From Syntrophobacterales bacterium (GTDB taxonomy: Bacteria > Desulfobacterota > Syntrophia > Syntrophales > UBA5619): DNA of 64,000 nt. The notes beneath the pieces are model-generated. The model was not told the origin of the DNA. It saw only the letters and a list, made by a program, of their open reading frames with translations, and made no database searches. The position numbers and the translations under genes were made by a program. Shown piece by piece: positions 30,180 to 36,702 of the stretch. How positions within the stretch are numbered: position 1 is the stretch's first letter; every line of letters begins with the position of its first letter. The DNA is taken from assembly GCA_019429105.1 (NCBI GenBank), contig JAHYJE010000006.1, forward strand, positions 1 to 64,000, written 5' to 3'.

Positions 30180-30371
30180 CGATGTAAAAATGATCTCCGT
30201 CCAATGTGATCCGTTGCTGTCGGGCTATAAAGGCGAAGCCCCTTCCCAGCTCCAGCAGGAAGGCCTGCAAGTTGTTGATCAGCGCCTGCTCAAGCTCTGA
30301 CTCGACCAGTTTCGGCGACGCGGGAAGACCTAGAAACTCTATGACCACCGGATCTTTGAACACATCGGGAG

Positions 30372-30453
30372 ATTCATCACGCACTGCGTGATGAATTCGG
30401 GAGGTGCCCTGCGACAAACCCTGCAAAGATTTGCCACGCAGTGCGTGATGAAT
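30372..30453. repeat. Two copies of a short palindrome inside the nuclease remnant
   Basis: CACGCACTGCGTGATGAAT at 30378-30396 and CACGCAGTGCGTGATGAAT at 30435-30453 differ by one base. The first is part of a 25-base near-palindrome starting ATTCATCACG at 30372. In the protein they give the repeated word IHHAL/IHHAV. They look like small mobile or expanding palindromes within the coding region. Confidence 0.6.
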
Positions 30454-30627
30454 CTCCACTGGCAGGAGAGCAGGATATTCGACATAAAACTGCCGAAACC
30501 AGCGCAGGTTTGTCCCCGAATAACCGGATCCGAAATCCGCAGTCAGCAACGAAGCGAGTTCTTCAAGGAGCGTCTCGCCATACCCGGCCTTGACTTGATT
30601 GTCTCGCGCGGTTGCCGGGATGCGCTG

Positions 30628-31425
30628 TCACTCGAGCGCCACGACTGCGTCCACCGTCAGCTCGTACTCCTCGTTCTCGTTGAGGTCGTGCACCCGAACC
30701 TTCTCGACCTCAAACTCGCCGAGGACGGCAAGCAACTGGGACTCGTAGAGAACCTTGACATCCGATCGCTTGAGCGGCGCCCGGAAGTCGTCTTTGGCCT
30801 CAGGCTGCTTGTAGGGACTCATGAATACTACGCGCCCCGTGTGCTCCGTTAGCGCGAGCGCGAGCTTGACTGACCGCTCGCCGCGGTCGAGGATGAGCAC
30901 GCGGCGGTCTTTGAGCTCGTCAGGGTTGGGTTCCTGCCGATAGACGCCCTTGCCCACAAGGGCGTCGAACCCTTCCACGATTGTCGGCGGCAGCTCGCAC
31001 GACTGCCTGACCGTGCCGGGCGCGGGCGCCTCCGGCGTCTCGCCGCGCCGGCCCTCTCGCCAGGACTTGATGGCCTCGTGAAGCGCATCGGCAGCCAGGT
31101 TGGAGCAGTGCATTTTGATGGGGGGGAGTCCGTCGAGCGCGTCCGCCACGTTGCCGCGCGAAACCTGCATCGCCTCATCGAGGGTCATTCCCCGGACGAG
31201 CTCCGTGGTCATGCTGGATGTGGCAACGGCCGAACCGCAACCAAACGTCTGGAATTTGATGTCCGCAATGCGGTCATCCTTAACTTGAATGTACATGTAC
31301 ATGAGATCGCCGCAGACGGGATTGCCTACCTTTCCCACCGCGACGTCGGGCCCCTCCAAAGTGCCGACGTTCCGGGGGTTGCGGAAATGATCGAGAGTTT
31401 TTTCCGAATATTGAGTTGATTTCAT
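30628..31425 (-). CDS. IscU/NifU-like Fe-S scaffold fused to a thioredoxin-reductase-like domain
   Basis: Residues 1-125 are an IscU-type scaffold with the three cluster cysteines in GNPVCGD (C38), FGCGSAVA (C63) and HCSNLA (C107). Residues from about 145 to 265 resemble the NAD(P)-binding domain of thioredoxin reductase (LVGKGVYR, KDRRVLILDRGERSVKLALAL, VKVLYESQLLAVLG, TVDAVVALE) but lack both the GxGxxG motif and the redox CxxC. The fused domain may be a docking or sensor module. The ATG directly follows the stop of the NifS-like gene, so the two are one operon. The scaffold half looks functional. Confidence 0.8.
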   Translation of the reverse strand: MKSTQYSEKTLDHFRNPRNVGTLEGPDVAVGKVGNPVCGDLMYMYIQVKDDRIADIKFQTFGCGSAVATSSMTTELVRGMTLDEAMQVSRGNVADALDGLPPIKMHCSNLAADALHEAIKSWREGRRGETPEAPAPGTVRQSCELPPTIVEGFDALVGKGVYRQEPNPDELKDRRVLILDRGERSVKLALALTEHTGRVVFMSPYKQPEAKDDFRAPLKRSDVKVLYESQLLAVLGEFEVEKVRVHDLNENEEYELTVDAVVALE

Positions 31426-32613
31426 TTAGCTTTCTCCCTTGAGTTTCTTGTCCATATCGTAGAGCGGCGAAAGCGAGCGCAGCCTCGCAACAATGCCCGG
31501 CAGCGTCTCCAGCACACGCTCGACATCCTCGGACTTGCTCCAGCGCCCGAAGGTGAACTCGAGCGATCCGTGCGCCTCCTCGTGCAGCAGCCCGCAGGAG
31601 AGCAGCGTATGCGATGGTTCAAGCGTCTTGGACGAACAGGCCGACCCGGTCGAGACGGACACGCCCCTGTCCTTGAGGGACAAAAGCAACGACTCGCCCT
31701 CGACGGCCTCGAACCGAAAGTGGGCGTTATTGGGCAGCCTCTCTGTCGGATGCCCGTTTAAGTGCGAGTCCGGAATGGCCGCAAGCACCTCCCTGATCAG
31801 CCGGTCGCGCAGCGGCAGCATCCGCGCCACGTCGTCGGCCATCTCACGCGCCATGATATCCGCGGCCTCGGCCATGCCCACGATGGCGGGCATGTTCTCG
31901 CCGCCGGAACGGAGACCGCGCTCCTGTCCGCCGCCGATGATGACGGGGGCAACATTCACGCCTTTGCGGACGTAAAGAGCGCCCAGACCCTTGGGGCCGT
32001 AGATGTCGTTGGAGGAAAGCGTCAGCAGATCTACGCCGACTTCGCGCATATCGATGGGGACAAGGCCCTCGGCCGCGACAGCATCTACATGCAGCGCGAT
32101 GCCGGAGCCCTTGAGCAGGGCGGCGATTTCCCCGATGGGTTGAACGGTGCCGATCTCGCTGCTGGCCCACCCCACGGAAACGAGCAGCGTCTCATCCTTG
32201 AGGCGCGCCCGGAGCTTCGCGGGGTTCACCCGTCCGAACTGGTCAACGGGAACCCGGGTAACCTTGAAACCCTGTTTCTCAAGCGCCTTGGCGAGGTTGT
32301 GCACGGAGATGTGCTCTACCTCGGCGATAACTACGTGGTCGCCCTTGCGGCGGTTGCGGGCGGCATAGCCCAAGAGCGCGAGGTTATTTGATTCGGTCGC
32401 GCCCCCCGTGAAGATAATCTCGTCCTTCTCGGCGCCAATGAACCGGGCAACGCGCTCGCGCGAGCGCTCGAGCGCCTCCGTCGCCTCGTCTCCATCCTCG
32501 TGCAGCGAATTCGGATTCCCGAACCGCTCGGTGAACCACGGCAGCATGGCCTGGACGACCCGGGGGTCAACAGGCTTCGAGGACTGGTAGTCCAGATAAA
32601 CGTTTGCCGGCAT
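31426..32613 (-). CDS. NifS/IscS-like cysteine desulfurase homologue lacking the PLP lysine
   Basis: The 395 residues follow the class V aminotransferase fold of cysteine desulfurases throughout (DYQSSKPVDPRVV, GGATESNNLAL, EVEHISV, GENMPAIVG). The active-site Cys loop STGSACSSKTLEPSH is intact (C326), as are H101 and D177. But the PLP Schiff-base Lys, normally in HKIYGPKG, is replaced: residues 202-203 are N-D (SSNDIYGPKGLG). The PLP-contact Gln (A180 in HVDAVA), the Asn of NNEIG (SSEIG here) and the substrate-binding Arg (E352 in SLEFTFGR) are also changed. It is unlikely to work as a normal PLP desulfurase. ATG 32613 has a GGGAGAAA site. Confidence 0.85.
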   Translation of the reverse strand: MPANVYLDYQSSKPVDPRVVQAMLPWFTERFGNPNSLHEDGDEATEALERSRERVARFIGAEKDEIIFTGGATESNNLALLGYAARNRRKGDHVVIAEVEHISVHNLAKALEKQGFKVTRVPVDQFGRVNPAKLRARLKDETLLVSVGWASSEIGTVQPIGEIAALLKGSGIALHVDAVAAEGLVPIDMREVGVDLLTLSSNDIYGPKGLGALYVRKGVNVAPVIIGGGQERGLRSGGENMPAIVGMAEAADIMAREMADDVARMLPLRDRLIREVLAAIPDSHLNGHPTERLPNNAHFRFEAVEGESLLLSLKDRGVSVSTGSACSSKTLEPSHTLLSCGLLHEEAHGSLEFTFGRWSKSEDVERVLETLPGIVARLRSLSPLYDMDKKLKGES

Positions 32614-32690
32614 TAAACTTTTCTCCCTATCACTCCGAAGCGGCTTACAACCAAAAAGACCCCCGTGGGGGCGGTTCGAGACCGCCCTGC

Positions 32691-33053
32691 TTAGAACCAC
32701 ATGGCGGCATCGGCATCCAGCGCCAGATCGTTCAGCGTCCCCGCTCCCACAACCTTCGCGCCCGGGATGAGTTCAACCTTGTCCCAGCCGAGCATTTGCT
32801 TGGAGGCCTCGCATACAAGGACTTCGACGCCCATCTGCATCGTCTTGTCGAGCATCACCTTCACTGTGGGAAACGATCCCATCTTGATGGCCTCGGCAGC
32901 GCCCGGCCTCATTATCTTTATCCCCATGCCAAGATAGTAAACCTTGGCCTTCAATCCCATCGCCACGGCGGTCTGGGCCAGCACCAGGGGCGAGTACTGC
33001 CGCTCGGGCGCATCCGTCGTCTGCACATACAGAATAAATTTTTCGTCAGCCAT
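32691..33053 (-). CDS. DsrE-family sulfur-relay protein
   Basis: The 120-residue protein has the DsrE/TusD-type alpha/beta fold: FILYVQTTDAPERQYSPLVLAQTAVAMG, VYYLGMGI and a conserved cysteine at position 81 in VEVLVCEASKQMLG. Related proteins carry persulfide sulfur between TusA and downstream acceptors. The ATG at 33053 is chosen because AAGGAG lies nine bases upstream; a longer upstream frame has no such site. It sits between the TusA-like and NifS-like genes on the same strand. Confidence 0.85.
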   Translation of the reverse strand: MADEKFILYVQTTDAPERQYSPLVLAQTAVAMGLKAKVYYLGMGIKIMRPGAAEAIKMGSFPTVKVMLDKTMQMGVEVLVCEASKQMLGWDKVELIPGAKVVGAGTLNDLALDADAAMWF

Positions 33054-33095
33054 TTCTTTTCGCTCCTTATATTCAATCTGAAAAACGCTCAAAGG

Positions 33096-33338
33096 TCACT
33101 TCAAGCGTTTTATGAGAAAGCGCATATGGTCGTCATACTTTTCGAAACTTACGACCTCGTGGCCCGTGCGCTTGGCAAACCGCTTGAGATCCTCTTCGGC
33201 CGCAGGATCGTCGGTGACGACCTCCAGCACCTGTCCCACATCGATCTGGTCGATGTTGGTCCGTGTCTGCAGGAGCGGCTCCGGACAATAGAGCCCTATG
33301 CAATCCAATGTCTGATCGGGTTTGATATCGTTAGCCAC
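33096..33338 (-). CDS. TusA/SirA-family sulfur carrier
   Basis: At 80 residues this has the TusA length and the hallmark CPEPLLQTR motif, with the persulfide-carrying cysteine at position 18 (another Cys at 13). It would accept sulfur from a desulfurase and pass it on. The start is a GTG at 33338 preceded by GGGGAG. It appears to be the first gene of an operon TusA-DsrE-NifS-IscU with gaps of 42, 77 and 0 bp. Confidence 0.88.
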   Translation of the reverse strand: MANDIKPDQTLDCIGLYCPEPLLQTRTNIDQIDVGQVLEVVTDDPAAEEDLKRFAKRTGHEVVSFEKYDDHMRFLIKRLK

Positions 33339-33430
33339 TCCCCAGCCCTCCCCAAATGCTGATTTAATAACGCCTTGCTTTCACTCGGTTTGGAATATAG
33401 GGACGCTGTTTTTGCTTGTCAAGGTATATT

Positions 33431-34501
33431 TTAAAACGTGAAAGATGCGGAGATCGCTCCGAAATTCTGCACTTTCTTCTGGGTTTTAAATTCTTTCGTG
33501 CGCTGAACCAGCGAATAGGTGATTTTGAAGCGGTGGATGATCATGCCTATACCGCCGACCAGATCGGCAACAAACGGCTGTCTGGCGACGCTGTGACTGT
33601 CTTGAAAAGTATTCCCGTCGAGCAGGATGTTCCGGGCAACGGCGCTCCCATCGACCGCGAAGAAAAGGTGGATGCCGAAACGCTGGAAAGGGCTGAAAAA
33701 CCGGGGGTTTGCATCATCGACCGGGGCATTGCCGTCGGCTCCCGTCCGGATCAGATACGTCCCGAAATCGTTCGGAAGGTTCCAGCCGAAACGCAACTGG
33801 CCGCCCAGATTGATTCCTGTGTAGGCGTTTCCGATGGTAACCCCCATGTGGGGAATGCAGTCGAACCCGAGTCTTGTGGAGCTTCCGGTGCTGAATACTT
33901 TCCATTTGCGTTCGAAATAAATGTTCAAGATGGGTTCGTCGCGAAGCTGATGAGACCAACCCTGGGGATCTACAGAATCTATCCAGTGGTGGATTTCCTT
34001 CTGGCAGTCTTCTGCGTAGGAATGGCGTCCGACAATCCCCAGAGCGAATTCTATCGTGTCCATCTGCCGCGAGTTCTTGCTGTGCAGTCCCAGCCCCAGG
34101 TAGGTGATCCCGGCATAGGGCCGGTCGTCCGGGAGCAGTTCGCTTTGCTCCTTGTCCGCCGGCGTGTAGATGTTCTGTCCCAGGGAGACGGAAACCGAGC
34201 GCTGCTCCCCCTCATCGTTCACGAAAGGCACGCCTTCAATGAAGCGGCGCATCCACAAGGGCAGACCGGCCACCTCCCGGTAATTAGCAAGGTCCCGGGA
34301 AATCCAGGAGAGCTTCGTCCCATGCGTGTAATAGCGGTCGTTGTTGTCGAAACTAAAAAGGTCGTTTTCCAGATAGAGAGTCAGGGTGTCCGACCGCCCG
34401 GCCGCTCCTTCTCCTGCAAGCGCCGGCTTTGGCGGAAAACAGATGAGGAAAAGGACAGCCGCCAGAATAAGACTTTGTTTTATTTCACAAAAATCTTTCA
34501 T
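33431..34501 (-). CDS. LpxR-like outer-membrane lipid A deacylase (DUF2219)
   Basis: The 356-residue precursor starts with a signal peptide (hydrophobic SLILAAVLFLICFP, cleavage near ALA-GE). The mature part has family motifs LTLYLENDLFSFDNNDRYYTHGTKLSW and LLPDDRPYAGITYLGLG, and ends in F as outer-membrane barrels do. LpxR removes the 3'-acyloxyacyl group of lipid A. The start overlaps the stop of the preceding dinB gene by 4 bases. This is the last gene of the cysK-dinB-lpxR run. Confidence 0.88.
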   Translation of the reverse strand: MKDFCEIKQSLILAAVLFLICFPPKPALAGEGAAGRSDTLTLYLENDLFSFDNNDRYYTHGTKLSWISRDLANYREVAGLPLWMRRFIEGVPFVNDEGEQRSVSVSLGQNIYTPADKEQSELLPDDRPYAGITYLGLGLHSKNSRQMDTIEFALGIVGRHSYAEDCQKEIHHWIDSVDPQGWSHQLRDEPILNIYFERKWKVFSTGSSTRLGFDCIPHMGVTIGNAYTGINLGGQLRFGWNLPNDFGTYLIRTGADGNAPVDDANPRFFSPFQRFGIHLFFAVDGSAVARNILLDGNTFQDSHSVARQPFVADLVGGIGMIIHRFKITYSLVQRTKEFKTQKKVQNFGAISASFTF

Positions 34502-35790: not shown

Positions 35791-36702
35791 TTATTCAAAA
35801 AGCTTGGTGCTTAAGTATTTTTCGCCCCTGTCGGGAAAGAGGGTGACAATATTTATTTTTTTGCCGGGCGTGCGCTTAACTTTTTTAGCCACCTCCAACG
35901 TAGCCACCATTGCCGCGCCGCTGGACATGCCTACAAAGATGCCTTCCTGCTTGATTATTTCCCGCGCCATCGCAAAAGCCGCCTCGGTTTCAACCTGGAT
36001 TATCTGATCGAGTTTTGCTTTGTCGTAGATTGCCGGGACAATCGCCTCCTCCATATTTTTCAAGCCCTGGATATAATGGCCGAGCGTAGGCTCGGCGCTG
36101 ACAATCTTCACGTCCGGACTGCAGAACTTTCGCAATCCCGCGCCAACGCCCATCAACGTCCCGGATGTGCCGATTGACGCCACAAAATAATCAACCTGCC
36201 CGCCTAACTGATCATGAATCTCCTGGGCGGTGGTTTCGTAGTGGGCGGCCTTGTTGTACTCATTGGAAAACTGATCCGGCATGAAATATTTTTCGGGATA
36301 TTGTTTAACCAATTCCCGTGCTTTTAAAATGGCACCGTCGGTGCCCTTCTTCCCCGGCGTCAATGTTATTTTTGCCCCGAAGGCCGCAATCATCTTGCGC
36401 CGCTCCACCGAAACCGCATCGCTCATCACAATTTCCACCTGGTAGCCCTTGATGGCGCCGATCATGGCAATGGCAATTCCCGTGTTGCCGCTGGTTGGCT
36501 CAATAATGATTTTCTCCTTTGTCAGCTCGCCGCTTTTTCCCGCCTGTTCAATCATCCGCAAGGCGATCCGGTCTTTAACGCTGCCGCCGGGGTTTACTCC
36601 CTCTATCTTGGCATAAATATTTACACTTTTGGGATTGGGATTTAATCTGTTGATGGCAACAAGCGGCGTTTTGCCAATGGTTTCCAGAATATTTTTATGC
36701 AT
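35791..36702 (-). CDS. Cysteine synthase (O-acetylserine sulfhydrylase family)
   Basis: The 303-residue fold type II PLP enzyme has the lysine motif NPGGSVKDR (Lys43), the phosphate/Asn loop PTSGNTGIA, and GTSGTLMGVG near the PLP phosphate. It makes cysteine from O-acetylserine or O-phosphoserine and sulfide. CysK and CysM cannot be told apart reliably here. Its TAA stop is in the same frame as dinB, which continues directly downstream. Other sulfur genes lie about 2.5 kb away but in a different unit. Confidence 0.92.
   Translation of the reverse strand: MHKNILETIGKTPLVAINRLNPNPKSVNIYAKIEGVNPGGSVKDRIALRMIEQAGKSGELTKEKIIIEPTSGNTGIAIAMIGAIKGYQVEIVMSDAVSVERRKMIAAFGAKITLTPGKKGTDGAILKARELVKQYPEKYFMPDQFSNEYNKAAHYETTAQEIHDQLGGQVDYFVASIGTSGTLMGVGAGLRKFCSPDVKIVSAEPTLGHYIQGLKNMEEAIVPAIYDKAKLDQIIQVETEAAFAMAREIIKQEGIFVGMSSGAAMVATLEVAKKVKRTPGKKINIVTLFPDRGEKYLSTKLFE

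What the first reader, a model, noticed from the sequence alone, without database searches (positions are those of the whole stretch)
30628..33338. Sulfur-handling operon built around a NifS-like protein that lacks its PLP lysine
Four adjacent minus-strand genes encode TusA-like, DsrE-like, NifS-like and IscU-fusion proteins. In the NifS-like protein the PLP Lys (HK in IscS) is replaced by N202-D203; the PLP-contact Gln is A180, NNE is SSE and the substrate Arg is E352. The catalytic Cys326 loop, His101 and Asp177 remain. All four active-site changes in an otherwise well-conserved, intact gene suggest a new role, such as a persulfide relay or scaffold that receives sulfur from TusA/DsrE and passes it to IscU. 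Residue changes are read directly; the function is inference.
Basis: partly seen in the sequence, partly recalled or inferred. Interest (0 to 1): 0.82.

Follow-up and report, generated by a model that had tools for sequence, protein, structure and literature searches.

The report
PLP-less IscS partner in iron-sulfur operon
A four-gene operon carries a cysteine-desulfurase look-alike that has lost the residues for its cofactor but kept its sulfur-handling cysteine; it belongs to a broad family already known from one archaeon, and here sits with two sulfur carriers and an iron-sulfur scaffold fused to half of a reductase.

Summary
In detail: four adjacent minus-strand genes encode TusA, DsrE, a NifS/IscS-like protein and an IscU fusion, and the stated residue changes are there. 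The central surprise, loss of the PLP lysine, is not new: Archaeoglobus fulgidus IscS2 (55% identical) has the same SSNDIYGPKG, is reported to lack desulfurase activity, and lends its cysteine to IscU's cluster. I find a large clade of such proteins in archaea and several bacterial phyla; Lys and Gln are lost together, the substrate Arg nearly always, while Cys326 is kept wherever readable. New, as far as my searches went: (1) the recurrent tusA-(dsrE)-iscS-iscU setting; (2) the IscU tail is the NAD(P)H half of a thioredoxin-reductase-like flavoprotein, degenerate here, complete and fused in Methanoperedens/ANME-2, a separate gene in two loci; (3) superoxide-reductase, rubrerythrin or flavodiiron genes near 23 of 114 loci. 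Best reading: a desulfurase-dead IscS that positions IscU and offers Cys326 as persulfide acceptor or cluster ligand, sulfur probably brought by TusA/DsrE. Sulfur direction is inferred. New variant of a known kind.

The parts
33394..33422 (-). promoter-like site TTGACA-17-TATATT upstream of tusA
   Evidence: 11 of 12 matches; 2 such sites found in 30300-33700 against a mean of 0.8 in shuffles; consensus match only
33096..33338 (-). TusA-like sulfur carrier, 80 aa, GTG start, Cys18 in CPEP
   Evidence: the Cys18 column is Cys in 81 of 81 same-strand TusA ORFs of the surveyed loci
32691..33053 (-). DsrE-like sulfur carrier, 120 aa, single Cys81
   Evidence: Cys81 is Cys in 60 of 60 same-strand DsrE ORFs of the surveyed loci
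32659..32672 (-). terminator-like hairpin between dsrE and the iscS-like gene; possible attenuation point
   Evidence: 5-pair stem and T run; 2 such sites found in the region, 3.7 expected in shuffles, so weak
31426..32613 (-). PLP-less IscS/NifS-like protein, 395 aa: N202-D203 for HK, A180 for Gln, E352 for Arg; Cys326, His101, Asp177 kept
30628..31425 (-). IscU-fusion, 265 aa; ATG follows the iscS-like stop codon directly
31054..31413 (-). IscU (NifU_N) domain with ligands C38, D40, C63, H106, C107
   Evidence: coordinates; ligand columns conserved in 82 to 85 of 85 IscU ORFs, the rest gaps; model matches 4eb5_C with Z 22.8
30631..30987 (-). C-terminal domain (residues 147-265): NAD(P)H half of a thioredoxin-reductase-like flavoprotein, without the Gly-rich loop and without an FAD domain
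   Evidence: searches (TIGR01292, residues 172-261, E 7.1e-8; mean pLDDT 84.0; 2zbw_A Z 18.0, rmsd 2.3, 118 residues), alignment A1

Best explanation
This is an A. fulgidus IscS2-type, PLP-free, desulfurase-dead IscS in an operon for iron-sulfur cluster assembly on IscU. It dimerises and docks IscU as ordinary IscS does. It cannot take sulfur from cysteine. Its Cys326 loop either receives sulfane sulfur from the neighbouring carriers TusA (Cys18) and DsrE (Cys81) and passes it to IscU, or ligates the nascent cluster while sulfide supplies the sulfur; I favour the first. The tail on IscU descends from an NAD(P)H-dependent flavoprotein that in other lineages is complete and probably supplies electrons to reduce the persulfide; in this lineage the tail has lost its cofactor motifs and probably serves as a docking or dimer surface. 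Shown: sequence changes, clade, gene neighbourhood, predicted fold of the tail, conserved cysteines and IscU ligands. Inferred: absence of PLP in this very protein, dimer and docking, direction of sulfur flow, electron donor role of the complete flavoproteins, role of the tail.
For: Best structure match is the A. fulgidus protein with identical SSNDIYGPKG; it has A, D, L and C at sites 180, 203, 352 and 326. Its lack of activity and its Cys ligation are reported in PMC7585200 (passages). The 58 no-Lys proteins in the tree form one side of a branch, SH-aLRT 93, with the eight trait columns masked. Cys326 is kept in 169 of 169 readable Asp-type sequences (2 gaps); Gln180 in 0 of 174, Arg352 in 1 of 169. 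Of 61 distinct loci with enough flank, IscU lies within 6 kb on the same strand in 51, TusA in 49, DsrE in 37, the tail in 29, all four in 18. A search by the tail alone, blind to the lysine, gave 74 loci (the window's own among them) with the tail fused to IscU; in the 68 where the site was read, the IscS has N-D (65) or N-E (3), never Lys. The carrier cysteines are invariant in the ORFs found. A full flavoprotein is fused to IscU in 7 loci and is a separate neighbour in 2.
Against: No spectra or assays of this protein exist here. TusA and DsrE could belong to a different pathway; DsrE was missed in 24 of 61 loci. The genome also holds an ordinary iscS-iscU pair and another Lys-type NifS, so the module need not be the main Fe-S source. 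In 14 of 114 loci no IscU was seen although flank was there, and 39 IscU are plain, without tail. A terminator-like hairpin lies between dsrE and the iscS-like gene. Two lysines, K109 and K329 close after Cys326, are conserved in the no-Lys set but not in Lys-type proteins. The tree is a quick one without bootstrap.
Confidence: 0.6

Rival explanations
1. Pure structural and ligand role as proposed for A. fulgidus: the IscS-like protein never carries sulfane sulfur; it holds IscU and lends Cys326 as a cluster ligand while free sulfide supplies sulfur. TusA and DsrE serve another step.
For: A. fulgidus report cited in PMC7585200. Sulfide can feed IscU without IscS in anaerobic E. coli (PMC13015791, abstract), and Methanococcus maripaludis uses sulfide as sulfur donor (PMC10500019, passages). 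DsrE was found in only 37 of 61 loci.
Against: TusA is within 6 kb on the same strand in 49 of 61 loci and its Cys18 is invariant in the 81 ORFs found, which points to a sulfane-sulfur donor in the same process.
Confidence: 0.27
2. Sulfur flows the other way or the protein regulates: the dead IscS titrates IscU or active IscS, or hands sulfur to TusA for tRNA thiolation.
For: E. coli IscS binds IscU and TusA, both as sulfur acceptors, at distinct sites (PMC2854127, abstract start in the search listing). The genome has a Lys-type iscS-iscU pair.
Against: A dead enzyme cannot originate sulfur from cysteine. The order tusA-dsrE-iscS-iscU recurs across phyla, which favours one joint task with IscU.
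Confidence: 0.07
3. The protein binds PLP after all through another lysine, such as K329 beside Cys326 or K109, and has a different PLP reaction.
For: K109 is Lys in 171 of 174 and K329 in 169 of 172 no-Lys sequences, and neither is conserved in Lys-type ones.
Against: Gln180 and Arg352 are lost too. A. fulgidus IscS2 has the same CSSKTL and is reported inactive. K208 of GPKG is Arg, Gln or His in 53 of 174.
Confidence: 0.04
4. Decaying pseudo-enzyme without function.
For: Several active-site residues are lost, and 17 of 20 relatives of the same genus or family have no close copy.
Against: Intact frame, one clade over many phyla, Cys326 kept throughout and recurrent neighbourhood.
Confidence: 0.01

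Closest known systems
Archaeoglobus fulgidus IscS2 (probable cysteine desulfurase 2; PDB 4EB5, 4EB7, 4HVK; 4R5F carries Lys at the Asp site)
   Same: Same Lys to Asp in SSNDIYGPKG, Gln to Ala, Arg lost (Leu), Cys loop kept, solved with IscU; 209 of 378 aligned residues identical
   Different: Af keeps NNE. Its solved IscU chain is 153 aa and matches only the IscU domain. Its gene neighbourhood was not examined here
Methanosarcina acetivorans IscS1/IscU1 (MA0808/MA0807)
   Same: IscS1 lacks the catalytic lysine and is clustered with IscU1; the cluster has four more genes of unknown function (PMC7585200)
   Different: IscU1 is 24.2 kDa; its extension and the four genes were not examined here, and no role is shown
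ISC and MIS minimal systems (IscS-IscU, MisS-MisU)
   Same: Core of a desulfurase-fold protein and an IscU-type scaffold (PMC12192291 and PMC10653786, passages)
   Different: These are described with an active cysteine desulfurase; here it lacks the catalytic residues, with TusA and DsrE genes added and a tail on IscU
Thioredoxin-reductase-like flavoproteins, including ferredoxin-NADP reductases of that fold
   Same: The IscU tail has the predicted fold of their NAD(P)H domain; full-length IscU fusions in ANME-2/Methanoperedens match TIGR01292 (two scanned), and the one searched against the PDB (P0005) also matches FNR chains such as 6gas
   Different: The window's tail lacks the FAD domain and Gly-rich loop; the thioredoxin-reductase CxxC was not found in the full-length fused or IscU-adjacent copies either

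Membership tests
A. fulgidus IscS2-type PLP-less IscS | Asp in place of the PLP lysine in SSND[ILM]YGPKG | tested here: met
A. fulgidus IscS2-type PLP-less IscS | falls in one clade with A. fulgidus IscS2, trait columns masked | tested here: met
   58 no-Lys rows, one change, SH-aLRT 93 (quick tree, no bootstrap)
A. fulgidus IscS2-type PLP-less IscS | catalytic-loop Cys kept and IscU as partner gene | tested here: met
A. fulgidus IscS2-type PLP-less IscS | no PLP, no desulfurase activity, Cys ligates the IscU cluster | not testable with these tools
   needs purified protein
Cysteine desulfurase IscS/NifS (active enzyme) | PLP-binding lysine, PLP-contact Gln, substrate Arg | tested here: not met
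   D203, A180, E352; NCBIfam NifS 467.4 bits is under its cut-off 530.75 and IscS 393.4 under 643.2
IscU/NifU scaffold | NifU_N domain with Cys38, Asp40, Cys63, His106, Cys107 | tested here: met
Thioredoxin reductase / TrxR-like FNR | FAD domain, Gly-rich NAD(P)H loop, (TrxR) CxxC | tested here: not met
   only the NAD(P)H half is present, and GGGNSA of P0005 reads DRGERS here
TusA | CPxP with active Cys | tested here: met
DsrE family | DsrE family match with conserved Cys | tested here: met

The most novel reading that the evidence does not exclude
A cysteine-independent iron-sulfur assembly route, found in Asgard archaea, Bathyarchaeota, methane-oxidising archaea and several anaerobic bacterial lineages: sulfane sulfur moves TusA to DsrE to the Cys326 of a dead IscS to IscU, is reduced there by a fused or neighbouring NAD(P)H flavoprotein (shrunk to a docking half-domain in the window's lineage), and serves to rebuild clusters when anaerobes meet oxygen.
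Probability: 0.3. Interest if true: 0.8.

Novelty: new variant of a known kind. Interest (0 to 1): 0.58.

Why it matters
The A. fulgidus protein could be taken for an oddity. Here it is one member of a broad clade with a recurrent partner set; the tail-fused form was found by a lysine-blind search in 84 of 195 sampled genomes of an Asgard MAG's phylum (fusion to IscU checked in 70 of the 84). That gives a concrete, testable picture of how anaerobes may feed IscU without, or beside, cysteine desulfuration: sulfur carriers in front, a persulfide or ligand cysteine in the middle, and in some lineages a flavoprotein as electron donor. The window's lineage, in which both the desulfurase and the flavoprotein part have lost their cofactor motifs, is a clean case for studying pseudo-enzymes as assembly platforms.

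Tried and rejected
Rejected: local mutation or pseudogene. Rejected: K208 of GPKG as substitute PLP lysine, since it is Arg, Gln or His in 53 of 174. Rejected as an overstatement: that genomes with this protein lack all desulfurases. A canonical HK pattern (exact matches, so a lower bound) was found in 30 of 44 genomes tried. In the other 14 the best match to a canonical IscS is the no-Lys protein in 14 of 14, but one of them shows a SufS-like SGHKICGPTG (L247). Of three Bathyarchaeota records titled 'chromosome', two hold a gene with 453 or 381 bits to the SufS model (cut-off 475.1) and one only a fragment that matches its first 95 positions.

Left open: TrxR or FNR as the ancestor of the IscU tail. 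PDB and NCBIfam scores put TrxR first, but no CxxC was seen in the full-length fused or adjacent copies; that FNRs of this fold lack the CxxC is recalled, not from a call. Led nowhere: papers on the combined gene set. No title or abstract start listed by searches describes a tusA-dsrE-iscS-iscU cluster or an IscU-flavoprotein fusion (one search listed 20 of 25 papers, and I did not open them; subscription journals are mostly not held).

Four loci (L107, L110, L139, L150) held no IscS-like ORF with the motif, L154 was dropped as a copy of L111, and 114 were counted. Neighbour counts use single-sequence phmmer from the window (and P0005), so TusA, DsrE and tail counts are lower bounds. In one search, 84 genomes had a match at E 2.5e-18 or better; I looked at 70 of the 84 (30 loci given, 40 fetched). 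Of the 74 fused loci, six gave no reading: three without IscS in the stretch (L266, L267, L291), two cut short (L281, L292), one where the script matched another stretch (L204). The oxidative-stress neighbours have only a weak control: no such gene near the Lys-type loci, which span only about 4 kb each; six of the nine flavodiiron genes lie on the other strand.
Full report
What is there. Four genes run on the minus strand: tusA-like (33096-33338), dsrE-like (32691-33053), iscS/nifS-like (31426-32613) and an iscU-fusion (30628-31425). Gaps are 42 and 77 bases, and the iscU ATG follows the iscS-like stop codon directly; purine-rich stretches like ribosome sites precede the starts. A promoter-like site, 11 of 12 matches, lies at 33422-33394 before tusA; a weak terminator-like hairpin lies between dsrE and iscS. 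Family matches are clear for all four.

The residues. In a wider, de-duplicated alignment, 171 sequences have Asp and 3 Glu at the lysine site. Gln180 occurs in 0 of these 174 and Arg352 in 1 of 169, while Cys326 is Cys in all 169 readable Asp-type sequences and His101 is His in 170 of 171. The 25 HK-type sequences keep Gln, Arg, NNE and His. At a 90% threshold in each set, the sites that differ between the sets are 103 (Ser against Ala), 180, 202 and 203. K329, three residues after Cys326, and K109 are conserved only in the no-Lys set; K329 may tune the cysteine, which is a guess.

Known relative. The best match in the PDB is A. fulgidus IscS2 (4EB5, E 3.1e-142), with the same SSNDIYGPKG; 4R5F has Lys at that place. 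PMC7585200 (passages and section 5) states that A. fulgidus IscS lacks desulfurase activity because Asp replaces the lysine, that it gives a cysteine ligand to the cluster in IscU, and that M. acetivorans IscS1 also lacks the lysine. Of the original A. fulgidus papers, Marinoni 2012 and Pagnier 2014 are not held and Yamanaka 2013 was not asked for; I saw only their titles in a reference list.

One clade, many lineages. Record titles name Bathyarchaeota, Asgard groups, Methanoperedens and ANME-2, Thermoplasmata, Nitrososphaerota, WOR-3 and Stahlbacteria, Aminicenantes, Eisenbacteria, Nitrospinota and deltaproteobacteria. On a tree of 88 sequences with the trait columns masked, the 58 no-Lys rows lie on one side of one branch (SH-aLRT 93), A. 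fulgidus IscS2 among them; the window protein sits in a 23-row subclade (SH-aLRT 100) with Asgard, WOR-3, Stahlbacteria, Aminicenantes and deltaproteobacterial sequences among others. The half-domain fusion almost matches that subclade: two changes on the tree; L068, whose IscU reading frame is only 72 aa, would account for one. The window's genome is a relative of Syntrophaceae and Syntrophobacterales MAGs (contig lengths of L130, L132 and L135 equal those of G005, G009 and G004). Within its own genus and family the gene is patchy: a 78% match in 3 of 20 relatives.

Neighbourhood, with and without bias. Of 61 distinct loci with over 900 bases before and 1000 after, TusA is within 6 kb on the same strand in 49, IscU in 51, DsrE in 37, the IscU tail in 29 and all four in 18. 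Because that set was chosen by the N-D motif, I also searched by the IscU tail alone: 395 genomes of the window's phylum gave 4 with a match at E 3.7e-31 or better, the window's own among them, and 35 genomes with weak matches only (1.7e-7 or worse); 195 of an Asgard MAG's phylum gave 84 at E 2.5e-18 or better. In 74 loci with the tail fused to IscU, the neighbouring IscS site could be read in 68: N-D in 65, N-E in 3, Lys in none. TusA was seen in 32 of the 40 loci fetched with longer flanks, DsrE in 16. So the tail implies lysine loss in every readable case. The reverse does not hold: among motif-chosen loci, 39 IscU are plain and 2 have a separate flavoprotein, against 29 half-domain and 7 full fusions.

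The tail. It scores as the NAD(P)H part of thioredoxin reductase (TIGR01292, E 7.1e-8). The AlphaFold model (mean pLDDT 84.0, pTM 0.52, so domain placement is unsure) matches 4eb5_C with Z 22.8 in the IscU half and thioredoxin-reductase-like 2zbw_A with Z 18.0, rmsd 2.3 over 118 residues in the tail. The former Gly-rich loop keeps one invariant glycine (G182) in 28 aligned fusions. In seven ANME-2/Methanoperedens-type loci IscU is fused to a whole flavoprotein, 425-446 aa in all (Pfam run on six of the seven), with Gly-rich motifs in place in the one I read (P0005). In L060 and L089 a separate flavoprotein gene follows IscU. None of these nine shows a CxxC(D/E) motif. This series suggests an electron donor that became fused and, in the window's lineage, lost its chemistry. 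The order of events is inferred.

Sulfur carriers and scaffold. The active cysteines are invariant where the ORFs were found: DsrE Cys81 in 60 of 60, TusA Cys18 in 81 of 81, and IscU C38, D40, C63, H106, C107 in all non-gap rows of 85. So the scaffold looks fit to hold a cluster and the carriers to hold sulfane sulfur. In E. coli, IscS binds TusA and IscU at distinct sites (PMC2854127, abstract start in the listing), so a dead IscS could meet both. Which way sulfur goes is not shown by any search here.

Setting. Desulfoferrodoxin (SOR), rubrerythrin or flavodiiron protein genes lie within 5 kb in 23 of 114 loci: SOR in 11 and rubrerythrin in 7, all on the operon's strand, flavodiiron protein in 9, six of them on the other strand. 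In the window's family relatives L130 and L132 SOR lies upstream of tusA, close by. This hints at building or repairing clusters under oxygen stress in anaerobes; the control is weak. The window's genome also has an ordinary iscS-iscU pair, another HK-type NifS and a SufBD-like gene, so the module is an addition there.

Verdict. What goes beyond print, as far as the listings of searches reach, is the recurrent operon, the lysine-blind link with the IscU tail, the flavoprotein series and the oxidative-stress setting. I rate it a new variant of a known kind.

Noticed in passing
L097:1587-3170 (-): IscU of Candidatus Sifarchaeum marinoarchaea carries an insert with Intein_splicing and LAGLIDADG_3 matches, placed at NPVC/CGDLM, beside the cluster-ligand cysteine.
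   Followed up: partly
L244 and L245 (genomes G459, G467): Two IscS-like proteins from Asgard genomes have Arg in place of the PLP lysine (AHRIHGPKG) but keep Gln180 and Arg352; they lie outside the no-Lys clade.
   Followed up: no
L026 and L033 (same order as the window): IscS-like proteins with Pro (GNPFYGPKG) or Thr (PHTIHGPKG) at the lysine site; single cases.
   Followed up: no
L130, L132 and nine other loci: Desulfoferrodoxin genes stand near the operon on the same strand; rubrerythrin in 7 loci and flavodiiron protein in 9.
   Followed up: partly
L118, L102, L085 and nine others: A heavy-metal P-type ATPase gene recurs within 5 kb of the operon, 12 of 114 loci.
   Followed up: no
window 35791-36702 (-): An ORF that reads like cysteine synthase lies about 2.5 kb upstream of the operon, beyond a DinB-like ORF and another ORF; by reading only, no family search was run.
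   Followed up: no
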